Below are positions 183 through 5,411 of a stretch of DNA of 5,411 nt, piece after piece. The notes under the pieces were generated by a model. That model saw only the letters and a program-made list of their open reading frames with translations, was not told where the DNA came from and searched no databases. The stretch is from Bacillota bacterium (GTDB taxonomy: Bacteria > Bacillota > Clostridia > Peptostreptococcales > Anaerovoracaceae): NCBI GenBank assembly GCA_017431395.1, contig JAFRLD010000177.1:1-5411 (forward strand), read 5' to 3'. Made by a program: the position numbers and the translations under genes. Numbering within the stretch: position 1 is the stretch's first letter; every line of letters begins with the position of its first letter.

Positions 183-557
183 TTACTTGATCTCGTTCGA
201 TCCAAACACGTTCATGATAGCGATCCCGAAGATGATCAGCGCCAGACCCACGATATCCGCCAGATTTAGGCCCTGCCTGAAAACCAGCACAGAAACGGCT
301 GCCAGAAACAGGATCCCTGCCCCGGACCAGACGGCGTACATGTATCCCAGATTATAGGTGACCAGCGCTTTAGCAAAACAGACGAAGCAGATCAGAAGAA
401 GCGCAGCGCAGAGTACGGTCGCCCACAGGACAGTACATCCTTCACTGTATTTCAGAAAGAAATCCGCGATGATCTCCGTGAGAATGGCGATGACAAAATA
501 CACTTTGCCTCTGGTCTTTTGCTCCAGCCCGTTCCATTTGTTCCGGATGCTCTCCAT
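183..557 (-). CDS. Small multidrug resistance (SMR) family transporter, second of a pair
   Basis: This 124-residue inner-membrane protein has four hydrophobic segments (about 19-34, 44-63, 70-92 and 99-118). The family hallmark is the single membrane-embedded Glu in helix 1, here Glu28 in TEIIADFFLKYSEG, which binds protons and cationic substrate in turn. Tyr74 and Trp77 in YAVWSGAG match the EmrE Tyr60/Trp63 region, and the Glu-to-Trp distance (49) equals that in EmrE. It has about 14 extra polar residues at the N-terminus compared with EmrE and with its neighbour. It starts 12 bases after the other SMR gene, and its AGGAGG binding site overlaps that gene's TAA stop, which points to coupled translation. 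Paired SMR genes often form obligate heterodimers (EbrAB and YkkCD types). The substrate is unknown; quaternary or methylated amines are plausible from context. Confidence 0.9.
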   Translation of the reverse strand: MESIRNKWNGLEQKTRGKVYFVIAILTEIIADFFLKYSEGCTVLWATVLCAALLLICFVCFAKALVTYNLGYMYAVWSGAGILFLAAVSVLVFRQGLNLADIVGLALIIFGIAIMNVFGSNEIK

Positions 558-569
558 ACTGCCTCCTCC

Positions 570-899
570 TTATCCGATCGTCCCGAAGGCGTTCACGATC
601 ACGCAGCCTGCCAGTATGAATGAGATCCCGACGAGTCCAGCCTTTGAGACCGGCTGCTTGAGAAACAGCGCCGAGATCAGGGAGGAGGATACGATCCCGA
701 TCCCGCTCCAGATGGCATAGGCTATGCCGAGGTTGATGACGATGATCGCCTTGGAAAAGAAAAAATAGCACAGGAAGTACAGGAGCAGCGTCATGAACGA
801 ACGGAAAGGCTTCGTAAACCCTTCCGTCGTTCCAATGATCGCCGTCCCGCAGATCTCAAATGCTATTGAAAGTGCCAAAAACAGATAGACTTGTGTCAT
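570..899 (-). CDS. Small multidrug resistance (SMR) family transporter, first of a pair
   Basis: This 109-residue, four-helix membrane protein has the normal SMR length and aligns end to end with EmrE. Helix 1 carries the essential Glu15 (AFEICGTAIIG, then TEGFTKPF, close to the EmrE SEGFTRLW segment). Tyr61 and Trp64 in AYAIWSGIGIV match EmrE Tyr60 and Trp63. Such proteins exchange protons for small hydrophobic or polyaromatic cations, or guanidinium in the Gdx branch; the helix 1 sequence here looks closer to the Qac/EmrE branch. It begins eight bases after the dipeptidase stop. Its only Shine-Dalgarno-like sequence (GAGGAAG) lies inside the last dipeptidase codons and is too far from the ATG, so it may rely on reinitiation from the upstream gene. 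It most likely forms a heterodimer with the SMR protein encoded just downstream. Confidence 0.92.
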   Translation of the reverse strand: MTQVYLFLALSIAFEICGTAIIGTTEGFTKPFRSFMTLLLYFLCYFFFSKAIIVINLGIAYAIWSGIGIVSSSLISALFLKQPVSKAGLVGISFILAGCVIVNAFGTIG

Positions 900-907
900 G
901 TGAGTTT

Positions 908-2713
908 TTATTCTTCCTCAGGCACACACATACTGTCCGCGAAATCCGCCGGTCCATATACGGTCCCATCGACCTTATAGATCGGGTAGGACATATCATT
1001 CACATACTCCCCGCCGATGAAAACGCTGCCTGCGCCCACGGTCAGAGTGCACTCGGTCCCATCCTTTGACAGAAGAATGGTCCCTCCCTTATCGGTCACC
1101 TGATAGCCTGCCGATTCAGCCGCTTTCACGAAAGCCACCGGCTTCGCGAAATTCACGCCGATCCCATGCTCATAATCGTCCTTCATGTAAGGGGCGTTGT
1201 CCGTCGTATTCAGTGCGCTCGCATAGAGCAGCGCCTTATACAGGATCGTGGAATTTGTGAGCTGACGTTTCTCTTCTGTCTTAGCCAGCCTGGTCACATA
1301 ATCCCTTCCTTCATCTTTGCCTTTTTTATATGCGTTCCGGACGTCTTTCATCTGTTTCTGGACACGGGCGATCTCCTGCTGCTCACAGTCCTGGCAGAAC
1401 TCGATGGCGCCTCTGCTCAGTCCCGGCCGGTCCTGCTCCGCCAGAATGCAGTTTCTCTTGAACATCCAGTAAGCGCTGTCCTCCTGGACCGCGGAGCCGT
1501 CCACCTTGTATTCGTCAAGTGTGTCCGTGATCCCGGAGAAGGACGGTACGAAGATCGAGTGCTCCGCATTGCCCATGCAGAGCCACAGGAGCTGGCAGGC
1601 GTCCTTCGGCATGTCGGACCAGGTCTGAACGACGTGGACATCAGAAGAGCAGTTGGTCCCGATCGGACGGATGGCCGGATCCGTGCGCTCCGTCACATCA
1701 TACTCTGTCCCCGCATAGCGGTCACGGTAGATGCCGAACACATCCTGGAGGGTGACCTTCTTGTCCGGCTTATAGAACAGCGGATAGTACGTATCGTTAT
1801 CGAAGGAATCATCGCTGCTGTCTTCGAACAGATCATGGAACCATTCTCCGATCCCCCCGCCTTCCTTCTCATCATGCTTCAGGGTCGAAGGCGAAAGCAG
1901 GGCGTGGCCTCTCCATGTACGGATGTTGGCGAACTCATTCCGATAGCCGGTGATGGACTTCACCAGATTGTATTTGCCATCTTCCTTCACGACATTTCCG
2001 GCGGCTTCGATCGTCTCGAAGAGATTCGGGGCGAACACATAGTCTCCCTTGTTCTGATCGTCCACGACACCGATCATGTTCTGATTCCCGTGGACCGCCA
2101 CACAGTCCGCCGGCATCTTCATGGCGCAATAGGTCTTGCCTCCGTAGATCTCCACGAACCAGGCTTCCTCCGGATCCGAGATCAGCAGTGTGTTGTATTC
2201 CGCGGAGCCATATTCAGCGATCAGCTTCTCGATCACTTCCACCGCTTCCCGAGCAGTCTTCGACTGGCAGGCGATCATAGCCGGGAGCACGGCTTCCCTG
2301 AGGCCGCCATCCTCCACCAAAGGATCCTGCGCAGCGTACTCCTCGCTGACCTCCGTGGTCACGGTGCCGACCACCGCAACGCCATATTCATTGGTGCAGC
2401 AGGCCGGATACATCCCGTCCCCCGCATCGGAGGAGTCCGGAACATAAGTATACTTATACGTGAGGTCCGGGAGCTTGAATTCGCTCCCCGTTCCGGTGTC
2501 GGTGAATACCCGTCCTGCCTTCTCCACTCTCGGCTGGACCTTGAACATCTTGTTGTAAGGTGAAGCGAGCTGGTCCTCACTTCTGGCGATGATGGTCGTA
2601 CCATCCGCGCTGGCATCCTTGCCGATGTACACGTTGGTGCAGGCGAATGCCCCCGCCGTGGTGAACAGCATCGCCAGCATGACCGCAATGACAATGATTC
2701 CTATTCTGTCCAT
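908..2713 (-). CDS. Secreted C69-family dipeptidase (PepD type, Ntn hydrolase) with C-terminal stalk-like domain
   Basis: This is a 601-residue predicted exported peptidase. Residues 1-24 form a signal peptide (Asp-Arg, then a long hydrophobic core ending AGAFA). Cleavage after Ala24 would expose Cys25 (ACTNVYIGKDAS), the N-terminal nucleophile expected of family C69, so signal peptidase itself may produce the active enzyme. The family motif follows at GTTIIARSEDQ (38-48), and the C69 core extends to about residue 500. Residues of about 515-601 (around VFIGGEYV and PIYKVDGTVYGPADFADSM) resemble the copper amine oxidase N-terminal-like stalk domain common on secreted clostridial proteins; that assignment is tentative. 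AAAAAGGAGA lies seven bases before the ATG. The gene starts 45 bases after the homoserine dehydrogenase-like stop, in the same direction, and is probably in the mtbB operon. Its link to methylamine metabolism is not obvious; supplying amino acids from extracellular peptides is one possibility. Confidence 0.88.
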   Translation of the reverse strand: MDRIGIIVIAVMLAMLFTTAGAFACTNVYIGKDASADGTTIIARSEDQLASPYNKMFKVQPRVEKAGRVFTDTGTGSEFKLPDLTYKYTYVPDSSDAGDGMYPACCTNEYGVAVVGTVTTEVSEEYAAQDPLVEDGGLREAVLPAMIACQSKTAREAVEVIEKLIAEYGSAEYNTLLISDPEEAWFVEIYGGKTYCAMKMPADCVAVHGNQNMIGVVDDQNKGDYVFAPNLFETIEAAGNVVKEDGKYNLVKSITGYRNEFANIRTWRGHALLSPSTLKHDEKEGGGIGEWFHDLFEDSSDDSFDNDTYYPLFYKPDKKVTLQDVFGIYRDRYAGTEYDVTERTDPAIRPIGTNCSSDVHVVQTWSDMPKDACQLLWLCMGNAEHSIFVPSFSGITDTLDEYKVDGSAVQEDSAYWMFKRNCILAEQDRPGLSRGAIEFCQDCEQQEIARVQKQMKDVRNAYKKGKDEGRDYVTRLAKTEEKRQLTNSTILYKALLYASALNTTDNAPYMKDDYEHGIGVNFAKPVAFVKAAESAGYQVTDKGGTILLSKDGTECTLTVGAGSVFIGGEYVNDMSYPIYKVDGTVYGPADFADSMCVPEEE

Positions 2714-2758: not shown

Positions 2759-3778
2759 TCACTGCACGGATCTGCTATGATCCGTCAGGATCCGGAGCAG
2801 GTCGCTCAATACTCCATAAGCGGTATGGTCGATCTCCGGCTCGAAAGGATGCTCGATCACGGTGACCCCGCCCATGAGGTCTGTGTAGATCGTGACATAG
2901 GATGCTGTCCCCTCCATGGTCAGGGCCAGAGACCCTTCCTCCACTAGAGCCGGCTCAACGACACCGACCGGCTTCCCGTCTTCGATCCAGCCGCGGCAGA
3001 GCAGCTTGATCCGTTTGCCCTGACGCTTCGCGGCTTCGATATCCTCCGGCGTGACCTCCCCGATCCCGGTCCTTCGTATATCCATCGGTGTGATCTGCAC
3101 ATCCATCAGCACGTTCATAAGAGCCGTCAGCTTAGCGGATGCGTCCCAGCCATCGATATCCATGCCCGGATCCGCTTCGACGAATCCCTGCCGCCGTCCT
3201 TCCTGAATGGCGTCTTCGAAGCTCACGCCTTTTTCCATTTCGGAGAGGATGAAGTTGGTGGTGGCATTCAATATCCCTTCCAGGGCTGTGACCCTGCATC
3301 CCATGAGGTTCTCTTTCGCCAGATTATAGACGGGAACGCCGTCCATGACCGTGGCTTCATGGCAGAAACTCACGCCTTTTTCTTTGGCAAGGTCCCTCAG
3401 CTCCCGGTAATGCCAGGCAACAGGTCCTTTGTTCGCCGTGATTACATGCTTCTCAAGGGATAGAGCCTTCCGGATATGGTCCGTTGCGGGCTGTCCCGTC
3501 ATGATATCGATCGGTGTCAGCTCCGCCATAACATCGTATTCACCTGAACCGATGATCGCGAGAGCATCGAGCGACCGGTCAAACATATCGTCGGTAAGCG
3601 CCTTCGTGTCAATGCCTTCCGGCTGCAGACAGCCGCCCAGGCGCCTGGTGCAGATCGCGGTGATGACCGCTTCCGTGTCGAAGGTTTCCCGCAGGTAATC
3701 CTTTTTTCGCAGGAGCATCTCCGCGAAGGCCTTGCCAACATTACCATACCCGATCAGTGCGATCCTGATCCTGTTCAT
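2759..3778 (-). CDS. Homoserine dehydrogenase-like NAD(P)-dependent oxidoreductase, short form without ACT domain
   Basis: This 339-residue cytoplasmic enzyme opens with a Rossmann dinucleotide fold (IALIGYGNVGKAF; glycines 10, 12 and 15). It contains TANKGPVA (114-121) with the catalytic Lys117, NATTNFIL (171-178), and the signature EADPGMDIDGWDASAKL (201-217) holding Glu201, Asp207, Asp212 and Lys216. These match the substrate-binding and catalytic residues of homoserine dehydrogenases, which interconvert aspartate 4-semialdehyde and homoserine. It lacks the C-terminal ACT domain that gives threonine feedback control in many bacterial Hom proteins. The longer open frame back to 3916 was rejected: AAAGGAGG lies seven bases before the ATG at 3778, and the Rossmann motif begins right there. 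The ATG overlaps the mtbB stop as ATGA, implying translational coupling. It may be biosynthetic Hom or a paralogue acting on a related hydroxy or semialdehyde compound linked to MtbB; the sequence does not decide. Confidence 0.88.
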   Translation of the reverse strand: MNRIRIALIGYGNVGKAFAEMLLRKKDYLRETFDTEAVITAICTRRLGGCLQPEGIDTKALTDDMFDRSLDALAIIGSGEYDVMAELTPIDIMTGQPATDHIRKALSLEKHVITANKGPVAWHYRELRDLAKEKGVSFCHEATVMDGVPVYNLAKENLMGCRVTALEGILNATTNFILSEMEKGVSFEDAIQEGRRQGFVEADPGMDIDGWDASAKLTALMNVLMDVQITPMDIRRTGIGEVTPEDIEAAKRQGKRIKLLCRGWIEDGKPVGVVEPALVEEGSLALTMEGTASYVTIYTDLMGGVTVIEHPFEPEIDHTAYGVLSDLLRILTDHSRSVQ

Positions 3779-5199
3779 CGGCGTGCCTCCTTTGATAAGA
3801 TCCCCGCGTTCTCTTTGAAGCGTTGTACAGAATTGATCCGGATGCCAAGGACCTCCTCGATCCTGCATTTGGCCATGATACCGTTGATCTCCTTCCCTGA
3901 GGGTTCCACATGGCAAAGGCCAAGTCCTAAATCTGTACGTATGTCTGTCATCGTCACGACATCGCAGAGATCTTCCACTGTGACTCCGAGTTTAGATGCT
4001 ACGTAGGATTTCGCTTCATCGATCTTCATCTTCTCTGCCAGCTGCATTCTGAGTACCAGGTCCCCTGCCGTACGTACTCCTCCCATGCCGGCGCAGATCG
4101 CGTGCGTAGCTTCTTCTCCCAGAGGATCTCCTACGCCTGCCTACAAGCCGTCTACTTTGCCGAGCTCCACGAGCGCCTTGTCCGCTCGCGATACGATGTC
4201 CGCAGGCATGATCTCCACCATCGGTACGCCGCACACTCCCATACCGACATCCGCGTGGACCGGAATGCCCGCGACCTTCGTGCAGGCCTGGGTAAATGTG
4301 ATGGTCCTGGCGATGTTCCAGGGGAACGACCGGCTGCAGTTCGTATTGACCACGAGGCCAAAAATGCTGGCGCCGGCCTCCTCGACCAATTTCACCTGGT
4401 CGTGCGGATAGAGCCCCGCCAGGCGCTTGCCCTTGTATTTTAACCTGCCATGCATGCCCAGCACGAACTCCCCGGCCATGCCGATCTCTACGGGCAGGTC
4501 CGGATGACGCGATGTGATCTGCTCACAGGCTTCCAGAGATGCCAGGAAGTCCGCATCGCCCGATGCCCCGCAGGTATCGAGGTTGATCCCGTCGGCTCCC
4601 GCCTTGTACATCTTCTCCGCAACGAAAGTGATGTCTTTGACGGAATGCTTCACCGCCTGTTCCTGTGCCTCCCAGGCTTCCTGGATCTTTCCCTCCGGGA
4701 GCAGTGTAGCCCAGTTGCCGACCGGTCCATCCGGCTGCGTATAAAAGCCCATGTCCGGCATGGCACCGTAGAGCAGCGGCATCGTAGTCACCTGCAGCGC
4801 TTGCTGCAGAGCACCCGCTTCACGCTCAGCGATGCCCTTGGCTGTTTTGAAGTTGTAATCGGTGTTCCCGATATCTACAGAATCACACCCCAGACACCGC
4901 TCATAGAGCAGCGTCTCCATTTCCTTCGGAAGCGGCACCTGCGATTTGACGTTGATCTTGTACCCGCCGGAATCATTGGTCAGGACGATCTCCCTGCCCG
5001 GGCTCACCCCGACGACACCCCCCGGTGCGGTAACGATGTCATATAGTTTCTCCATGTCTTCTTCGGACATGGGTTCTACCTTGCCGCATCGGACCGCATC
5101 CTCCGTGCCGGCCCAGATATCCGCACGGATCTCCTCCTCCGTCATGCGGACCAGAGAGCCATCCCCCATCCGCGTCCGGAACGTTTTTTCTTCTTTCAT
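3775..5199 (-). CDS. mtbB: Dimethylamine methyltransferase MtbB, pyrrolysine-containing (amber read-through)
   Basis: The full-length product is 474 residues, close to the roughly 467 of methanogen MtbB, and includes an in-frame TAG at codon 353 read as pyrrolysine. MtbB transfers a methyl group from dimethylamine to a cognate corrinoid protein in the cytoplasm, leaving monomethylamine; Pyl is thought to bind and activate the amine. Family landmarks recalled from archaeal MtbB are present: LYGAMPDMGFYTQPDGP (143-159), GADGINLDTCGASGDAD (201-217), GMAGEFVLGMHG (240-251), VDGL-Pyl-AGVGDPLG (349-361) and GMGGVRTAGDLVLRMQ (371-386). The homology continues across the TAG without a frame change to a TGA stop. 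The start at 5199 has TGAGG seven bases upstream and gives an N-terminus (FRTRMGDGSLVRMT) like that of known MtbB. It is the first gene of the likely operon and overlaps the next by four bases. No corrinoid protein gene adjoins it. A truncated protein ending at residue 352 would lack the active-site residue and about 25% of the chain. Confidence 0.93.
3786..3793 (-). promoter_or_regulatory. Ribosome binding site fixing the homoserine dehydrogenase-like start
   Basis: AAAGGAGG lies on the minus strand inside the last mtbB codons, seven bases before the ATG at 3778. It selects this ATG over an upstream in-frame ATG at 3916, which would add 46 residues unlike any Rossmann enzyme. Confidence 0.8.
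4104..4136 (-). repeat. Inverted repeat just after the amber codon, candidate PYLIS-like stem-loop
   Basis: On the mRNA strand GCGTAG (4136..4131) pairs perfectly with CTACGC (4109..4104) around a 21-base loop; short inner pairings such as GAG with CTC are possible. The stem begins four bases after the TAG, similar to the spacing described for the PYLIS element after the UAG of Methanosarcina mtmB. PYLIS is not strictly needed for amber read-through in archaea, and its existence in mtbB genes is doubtful, so function here is inference. The arms also encode conserved protein sequence, so chance pairing is possible. Confidence 0.35.
4141..4143 (-). other. In-frame amber codon decoded as pyrrolysine (residue 353 of MtbB)
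   Basis: The minus strand reads TAG here, between codons for Gly351-Leu352 and Ala354-Gly355-Val356-Gly357. In archaeal MtbB the Pyl codon sits in the same setting, between VDGI and VGVGDP. The frame is open on both sides, and the protein after the TAG is recognisable MtbB, so this is a recoding site and not a terminator. Decoding would require tRNA-Pyl and PylS, which are not encoded in the window. Confidence 0.9.
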
Positions 5200-5247: not shown

Positions 5248-5277
5248 ATTATACATCCGCTGCCTGATCAGGCACAA
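5248..5277 (-). promoter_or_regulatory. Probable mtbB operon promoter
   Basis: The minus strand has a perfect -10 box TATAAT (5253..5248) and, 18 bases upstream, a moderate -35 candidate TTGTGC (5277..5272). Transcription would start about 40 bases before the mtbB ATG. The -35 is imperfect and overlaps a perfect palindrome, as expected if the promoter is controlled by a DNA-binding protein. Confidence 0.55.
5261..5274. promoter_or_regulatory. Perfect 14-bp palindrome, candidate operator of the mtbB promoter
   Basis: TGCCTGATCAGGCA is fully self-complementary. It lies in the spacer between the proposed mtbB -35 and -10 boxes, overlaps the -35 by three bases, and is about 20 bases upstream of the divergent plus-strand -35 box. 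A dimeric regulator bound here would block the mtbB promoter. The protein that binds is not identifiable from the window. Confidence 0.5.
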
Positions 5278-5295: not shown

Positions 5296-5324
5296 TTTAC
5301 AAAACGTGGACTTAATGGTATAAT
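5296..5324 (+). promoter_or_regulatory. Sigma70/SigA-type promoter for the right-edge plus-strand gene
   Basis: TTTACA (5296-5301), a 17-base spacer and TATAAT (5319-5324) with an extended -10 TG at 5316-5317 form a near-consensus promoter. It lies about 50 bases before the ATG at 5375 and points away from mtbB, so the two units are divergent. Confidence 0.78.
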
Positions 5325-5374
5325 TAGGAAAATACTATATGTTGTACAAAACCCTGGAGATTAAGGAGGTAATC

Positions 5375-5411
5375 ATGAAAAAGGCAACAGGCATATTGCT
5401 CGGTCTGCTGA
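5375..5411 (+). CDS. Partial gene, N-terminus with signal peptide-like start, product unknown
   Basis: Twelve codons (MKKATGILLGLL) lie before the window ends. Two lysines followed by a hydrophobic run is typical of the start of a Sec signal peptide or lipoprotein signal, so the product is probably exported, for example a substrate-binding protein or lipoprotein. The start is well supported by TAAGGAGGT (5362-5370) shortly before the ATG and by the strong promoter at 5296-5324. It is divergent from the mtbB operon and shares its regulatory region. The family cannot be told from this fragment. Confidence 0.75.
   Translation, partial: MKKATGILLGLL

What the first reader, a model, noticed from the sequence alone, without database searches (positions are those of the whole stretch)
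3775..5199. Pyrrolysine-containing MtbB hidden as two ORFs by an in-frame TAG
The 352-codon ORF ends at TAG (4143..4141). The same frame continues with AGVGDPLG and runs 121 more codons to TGA, with MtbB-like sequence throughout. Gene callers using the standard code would report a truncated methyltransferase plus a 103-residue hypothetical. This implies a bacterium that decodes UAG as Pyl and can use dimethylamine, which is an uncommon trait outside methanogens.
Basis: partly seen in the sequence, partly recalled or inferred. Interest (0 to 1): 0.85.

Follow-up and report, generated by a model that had tools for sequence, protein, structure and literature searches.

The report
Stray pyrrolysine dimethylamine methyltransferase gene
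A bacterium, likely from a gut or rumen, carries a gene of the dimethylamine methyltransferase family with one UAG stop codon inside it, at a position where nearly all compared relatives have the same codon, so it is likely read through with the rare 22nd amino acid pyrrolysine; such bacterial genes are already known, but this copy sits away from its usual partner genes, and the decoding genes, not found in the incomplete genome, would have to lie in the missing part.

Summary
The joined protein is MtbB by family models (PF09505 585.6 bits; TIGR02368 451.6, cut-off 369.1). TAG stands at 55 of 56 aligned sites in named relatives, and the part behind it is under the same amino-acid constraint as the part before it. 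So it is a read-through codon, not an error or plain decay.

In the family, 25 of 26 mtbB genomes also have PylS; the exception is this genome. It shows no PylS or PylD over cut-off and no tRNA-Pyl, but is 79% complete. In its genus the two mtbB genomes without PylS are the two least complete of five. A pyl cluster in the missing part is likely, not proven.

The place is unusual: no mtbC, mttB or pyl gene on the contig, and an ATGA overlap with a homoserine dehydrogenase gene. A same-genus genome has a comparable stray copy with its pyl cluster on another contig.

Bacterial Pyl-MtbB is in print. Verdict: real; a new member of a known kind.

The parts
3775..5199 (-). mtbB, dimethylamine:corrinoid methyltransferase family, 474 codons with an in-frame TAG
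   Evidence: PF09505 585.6 bits, TIGR02368 451.6 bits against cut-off 369.1
4141..4143 (-). in-frame TAG, codon 353, predicted pyrrolysine codon
   Evidence: TAG at 55 of 56 aligned sites in named relatives; in strand 351-354 of the model
2759..3778 (-). homoserine dehydrogenase gene (hom); its ATG (3778..3776) overlaps the mtbB TGA (3777..3775) as ATGA; AAAGGAGG, a likely ribosome binding site of hom, lies inside the mtbB 3' end
   Evidence: sequence; PF00742 149.5 bits
908..2713 (-). C69 family dipeptidase gene
   Evidence: NF033678 286.8 bits, cut-off 250
5261..5274 (.). perfect 14-base palindrome TGCCTGATCAGGCA upstream of mtbB, possible operator
   Evidence: a TATAAT at 5253..5248 beside it was seen by eye only, one search reports no promoter-like site on that strand

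Best explanation
The window carries one open-framed gene of the dimethylamine methyltransferase family (mtbB) whose conserved in-frame UAG is likely translated as pyrrolysine 353, giving a 474-residue enzyme predicted to move a methyl group from dimethylamine to a corrinoid protein. Inferred steps: tRNA-Pyl charged by PylSc/PylSn reads the UAG; the Pyl side chain in the barrel activates dimethylamine for transfer to Co(I) (mechanism recalled from Methanosarcina work). The pyl genes and the corrinoid partner would lie in the fifth of the genome missing from the assembly. The gene has probably moved out of an mtbC-mttB-mtbB-ramA-pyl cluster as in its nearest relatives and is now likely co-translated with a homoserine dehydrogenase gene.
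For: Family models pass through the TAG. TAG at 55 of 56 sites. Equal amino-acid constraint on both sides; private changes at otherwise invariant columns 3 of 125 before and 2 of 39 behind, p 0.59. AlphaFold2 model with mean pLDDT 91.3; residue 353 is in strand 351-354, by my count the last of eight barrel strands. mtbB and PylS co-occur in 25 of 26 mtbB genomes among 197 (Fisher 3e-28, not corrected for kinship). In the nearest mtbB loci with flanks (L033, L034, L035) mtbC, mttB, ramA and pyl genes surround it, with tRNA-Pyl. In the genus, PylS is missing only in the two least complete of five mtbB genomes. Precedent: G214 of the genus has one mtbB on a contig without such genes and its pyl cluster on another. 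Contig fits the bin: tetranucleotide correlation 0.907 with other own contigs, hom nearest to genus members at 82%.
Against: No PylS (best 28.5 bits, cut-off 178.15), PylD (best 24.3, cut-off 150.05) or tRNA-Pyl (strict filters, 101 of 964 candidates scored) in the assembly, and no Pyl-type corrinoid protein over cut-off (only 1 of 49 genus genomes passes that cut-off). Five other family genomes with mtbB at 76-80% completeness all show PylS. Third-position GC drops from 0.747 to 0.562 behind the TAG, the largest drop of 39 genes compared, and the window ties for the highest share of private changes behind it. The window's end branch (0.18) is longer than those of its three sisters.
Confidence: 0.8

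Rival explanations
1. The organism truly lacks pyl genes; mtbB is a stray arrival or leftover, and UAG ends the protein at residue 352, without the last barrel strand and probably inactive.
For: No PylS, PylD or tRNA-Pyl found in the assembly. No mtbC, mttB or pyl gene on the contig. No mtbB found in 44 of 49 genus genomes. GC3 drop behind the TAG.
Against: Frame and amino-acid constraint kept for 121 codons behind the TAG, so any loss would be recent. 25 of 25 other mtbB genomes in the family sample have PylS. The genome is only 79% complete.
Confidence: 0.12
2. The contig is mis-binned and belongs to another bacterium of the family that has pyl genes.
For: Contamination estimate 2.87%. The nearest mtbB relatives are in another genus, g20, up to 82% identical.
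Against: hom on the contig is up to 82% identical in the genus and 71% in g20; it occurs once in the bin at E 1e-60 or better. Tetranucleotide correlation 0.907 with own contigs, 0.742 and 0.795 with the two g20 genomes.
Confidence: 0.05
3. UAG is read as an ordinary amino acid by a nonsense suppressor, not as Pyl.
For: One relative has TTG (Leu) at the column (L084), and P0003 shows Q there, so the protein may tolerate another residue.
Against: 55 of 56 sites keep TAG; mtbB tracks PylS. No suppressor other than tRNA-Pyl was searched for.
Confidence: 0.02

Closest known systems
MtbB, Pyl-containing dimethylamine:corrinoid methyltransferase (PF09505, TIGR02368)
   Same: Full-length match to both models with an in-frame TAG
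   Different: Pyl machinery and corrinoid partner not found in this assembly; beside homoserine dehydrogenase
mtbB in mtbC-mttB-mtbB-ramA-pyl clusters of close bacterial relatives (L033 goat abomasum, L034, L035)
   Same: Protein 78-82% identical, TAG at the same column
   Different: There the gene is inside the cluster with pyl genes; here alone with hom
Bacterial dimethylamine methyltransferases already in print: marine Deltaproteobacteria (PMC8318568), DCMF Peptococcaceae (PMC6778437)
   Same: Dimethylamine methyltransferase with in-frame Pyl stated for the Deltaproteobacteria; for DCMF mtbB and Pyl-containing methylamine methyltransferases are stated (passages)
   Different: Other bacterial groups

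Membership tests
MtbB (PF09505 / TIGR02368) | Match to the curated equivalog model over its cut-off | tested here: met
   TIGR02368 451.6 bits, cut-off 369.1; PF09505 585.6 bits, cut-off 25
MtbB (PF09505 / TIGR02368) | In-frame UAG at the conserved column | tested here: met
   Aligned with the TAG of relatives: 55 of 56 sites TAG. Not aligned to a Methanosarcina sequence letter by letter; M. acetivorans rings with the same model
MtbB (PF09505 / TIGR02368) | Barrel fold of corrinoid methyltransferases | tested here: inconclusive
MtbB (PF09505 / TIGR02368) | Pyl at residue 353 and dimethylamine:corrinoid methyl transfer | not testable with these tools
   Needs mass spectrometry and an enzyme assay
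Pyl-decoding organism | PylS, PylD and tRNA-Pyl in the genome | tested here: inconclusive
   Not found over cut-off in a 79%-complete assembly; an incomplete genome cannot show absence
Pyl-decoding organism | PylB, PylC and PylSn in the genome | not tested

The most novel reading that the evidence does not exclude
A Pyl enzyme uncoupled from its decoding genes: this lineage keeps mtbB under constraint, translationally tied to homoserine dehydrogenase, as a methyl feed for methionine synthesis rather than for energy, and reads its UAG with a Pyl system reduced or placed unlike any described.
Probability: 0.06. Interest if true: 0.75.

Novelty: new member of a known kind. Interest (0 to 1): 0.35.

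Why it matters
It adds a bacterial Pyl-MtbB that standard gene calling cuts in two, in a bacterial family where 27 of 197 genomes carry PylS. Dimethylamine use by such bacteria would compete with methylotrophic methanogens (general knowledge, inference here). The stray copy without visible pyl genes shows that mtbB alone does not prove Pyl decoding in a draft genome.

Tried and rejected
Sequencing error at the TAG: rejected by conservation. Old decay: the frame is open and constrained behind the TAG; very recent decay cannot be excluded. RNA structure behind the UAG: 100 bases folded not clearly better than shuffles in the window and three relatives (z 0.81, 0.62, -0.93, -0.04). Rfam: no match in the window. 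Solved structures by sequence: none at E 0.001. MtmB and MttB were not among the rows shown by Foldseek or VIA-align, which excludes nothing. Stop usage as a test of UAG decoding: TAG share 23/105 in own stretches, 16/93 (G102) and 8/67 (G177) in PylS genomes, 32/93 in G206 without PylS; crude gene calls, inconclusive. A standing place for mtbB beside hom: in seven other hom loci compared, none has window-like mtbB DNA before hom. The truncated MttB relative at an own contig end (C36) is only 29-31% identical over 129-130 residues to the Pyl-type MttB of relatives, so it does not mark the missing cluster.

PylB and PylC in g38 genomes (see Noticed in passing): looked for by tblastn in only 218,563 of about 1.7 million bases of G112 and 130,365 of about 1.7 million of G037, plus L269; none found, not decisive.

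Full report
What is there. The window is a whole contig (C209, 5411 bases) of a draft genome of 1,614,188 bases in 255 contigs, 79.26% complete, 2.87% contamination. On the minus strand it holds mtbB (5199..3775), a homoserine dehydrogenase gene, hom (3778..2759), a C69 dipeptidase gene (2713..908) and two small multidrug-resistance-type transporter genes (899..570 and 557..183). mtbB is one frame of 352 codons, TAG, 121 codons, TGA. The family matches pass through the TAG as one stretch.

Is the TAG meaningful? The genome-contig scan gave 56 named loci. One does not reach the column and one has two copies, so 56 sites: 55 TAG and one TTG. In the family search 39 matches over the cut-off are listed; 38 have one inner TAG and one is a short N-terminal piece. 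Against L033 identity at codon positions 1, 2, 3 is 0.85, 0.93, 0.39 before the TAG and 0.87, 0.89, 0.46 behind it: the coding pattern continues. Private changes at otherwise invariant columns are 3 of 125 before and 2 of 39 behind, p 0.59. Results that lean the other way: the 2 of 39 ties for the highest share behind the TAG among 39 genes; third-position GC falls from 0.747 to 0.562, the largest fall of the 39, though most relatives fall a little too; and the window's end branch, 0.18, is longer than those of its sisters. I read these as lineage effects because the amino-acid constraint is equal on both sides.

Does the organism decode UAG? Among 197 genomes of the family, 26 have mtbB and 27 have PylS over cut-off; 25 have both. 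The one mtbB genome without PylS is the window's own. PylD goes with mtbB in 23 of 26; the exceptions are the own genome, G112 and G182. In the genus (49 genomes) mtbB is in five: G000 79%, G209 95%, G214 96%, G215 89%, G233 78% complete. PylS is in G209, G214 and G215 only. A tRNA-Pyl model gives 91-99 bits in the same three and weak 29-31-bit matches in nine others, which I take for other tRNAs; nothing in the own genome, where 101 of 964 first candidates were scored. The two mtbB genomes without PylS are the least complete ones, and in relatives with long flanks the pyl genes sit together, so one gap could explain the whole absence. Against this, five other family genomes with mtbB at 76-80% completeness all show PylS. 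The own genome also has no Pyl-type corrinoid protein over cut-off (best match inside an 880-aa frame, likely MetH), but only 1 of 49 genus genomes passes that cut-off. One truncated MttB relative stands at an own contig end, 29-31% identical over 129-130 residues to the MttB of relatives. PylB, PylC and PylSn were not searched in the own genome.

Place of the gene. In L033, L034 and L035, the nearest loci with flanks on both sides, mtbB stands between mttB and a ramA-like gene, with mtbC and pyl genes near. Of 61 loci compared, the window included and two of them the same contig, 53 have at least 3 kb on one side; 46 of these have a methylamine or pyl gene within 4 kb, and the window is among the seven without. 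The queries were proteins of three relatives, so distant neighbours may be missed. Among the seven is an mtbB of G214 (L064 and L176), whose pyl cluster is on another contig (L177): a precedent for a stray copy in a pyl genome. In the window the mtbB stop overlaps the hom start as ATGA; the last codons of mtbB, beyond where its relatives end, contain AAAGGAGG, a likely ribosome binding site of hom. hom-like DNA of at least 750 bases was matched in 19 of 49 genus genomes, the own one not counted among the 19. In the seven hom loci examined, the DNA similarity starts at the hom start codon or within about 14 bases of it. So mtbB was probably placed in front of hom in this lineage. Co-translation is inferred.

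Does the contig belong here? Tetranucleotide correlation of the window is 0.907 with other own contigs (nine own contigs tested singly: 0.876-0.944), 0.848 with G206 of the genus, 0.795 and 0.742 with the g20 genomes G177 and G102 that hold the nearest mtbB (the script ended with an error after these figures). hom is 82% identical to G207 and 71% to G102 and G177. I take the contig as correctly placed. In the mtbB tree the window groups with L033, L034 and L035 (support 100/99), while other genus copies stand in at least two further, distant places, so mtbB has been moved or lost repeatedly.

Taxonomy. Equal contig lengths point to names: G102:C44 and JAFPXY010000064.1 (goat abomasum), G177:C5 and CACYYH010000005.1, G136:C15 and FONK01000005.1 (pGA-8), G214:C66 and JAILDT010000095.1, G233:C99 and CADBRY010000099.1. 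The family is likely Anaerovoracaceae, since copies of G165 and of an uncultured Emergencia have equal identity to the window, and the tree tool labels Emergencia so. The window's own source is not known; gut or rumen is inferred from these relatives.

What is known. A 2014 paper calls mtbB almost exclusive to Methanosarcinales (passage, PMC3941956). Later passages report a dimethylamine methyltransferase with in-frame Pyl in marine Deltaproteobacteria (PMC8318568), mtbB and 23 Pyl-containing methylamine methyltransferases in DCMF (PMC6778437), and Pyl mttB in Emergencia and a novel Anaerovoracaceae genus of the human gut (PMC10653893). I saw passages of these papers, not whole texts. I saw no paper on an mtbB beside hom or in this strain, but searched only with the terms. 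Hence a new member of a known kind.

Noticed in passing
L268 3407-9036 (G112:C24), L269 2991-8608 (G182:C89), L270 108-3476 (G037:C121): Genus g38 seems to hold a decode-only Pyl cassette: PylS over cut-off, pylSc - tRNA-Pyl (79.1 bits) - pylSn beside ramA, with mtbC and mtbB(TAG) in G112 and G182, but no PylD over cut-off in any of the three genomes (97, 94, 77% complete) and no pylB, pylC or pylD on these contigs. If PylB and PylC are absent too, these bacteria would use pyrrolysine without making it.
   Followed up: partly
L084 11057-11059 (JADQBM010000005.1, isolate Soudan_22): The only one of 56 named sites with TTG (Leu) instead of TAG at the Pyl column; the same isolate has another mtbB with TAG (L056).
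   Followed up: no
P0003 (468 aa, 101 member sequences): A full-length MtbB with Q at the Pyl column: either a TAG to CAG change or a gene call made with TAG read as Gln; not resolved.
   Followed up: no
window 183-899: Two adjacent small multidrug-resistance family genes (PF00893 67.8 and 65.6 bits), 109 and 124 aa, perhaps a two-subunit pump.
   Followed up: no
window 5296-5411: Start of a divergent gene (MKKATGILLGLL..., cut by the contig end) behind a promoter-like site TTTACA-17-TATAAT, 11 of 12; one site found where shuffles give 1.6 on average.
   Followed up: no
G000:C60, C140, C180, C210, C230: Five own contigs came back mostly or wholly as N, so a part of the assembly cannot be read here; not pursued.
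   Followed up: no
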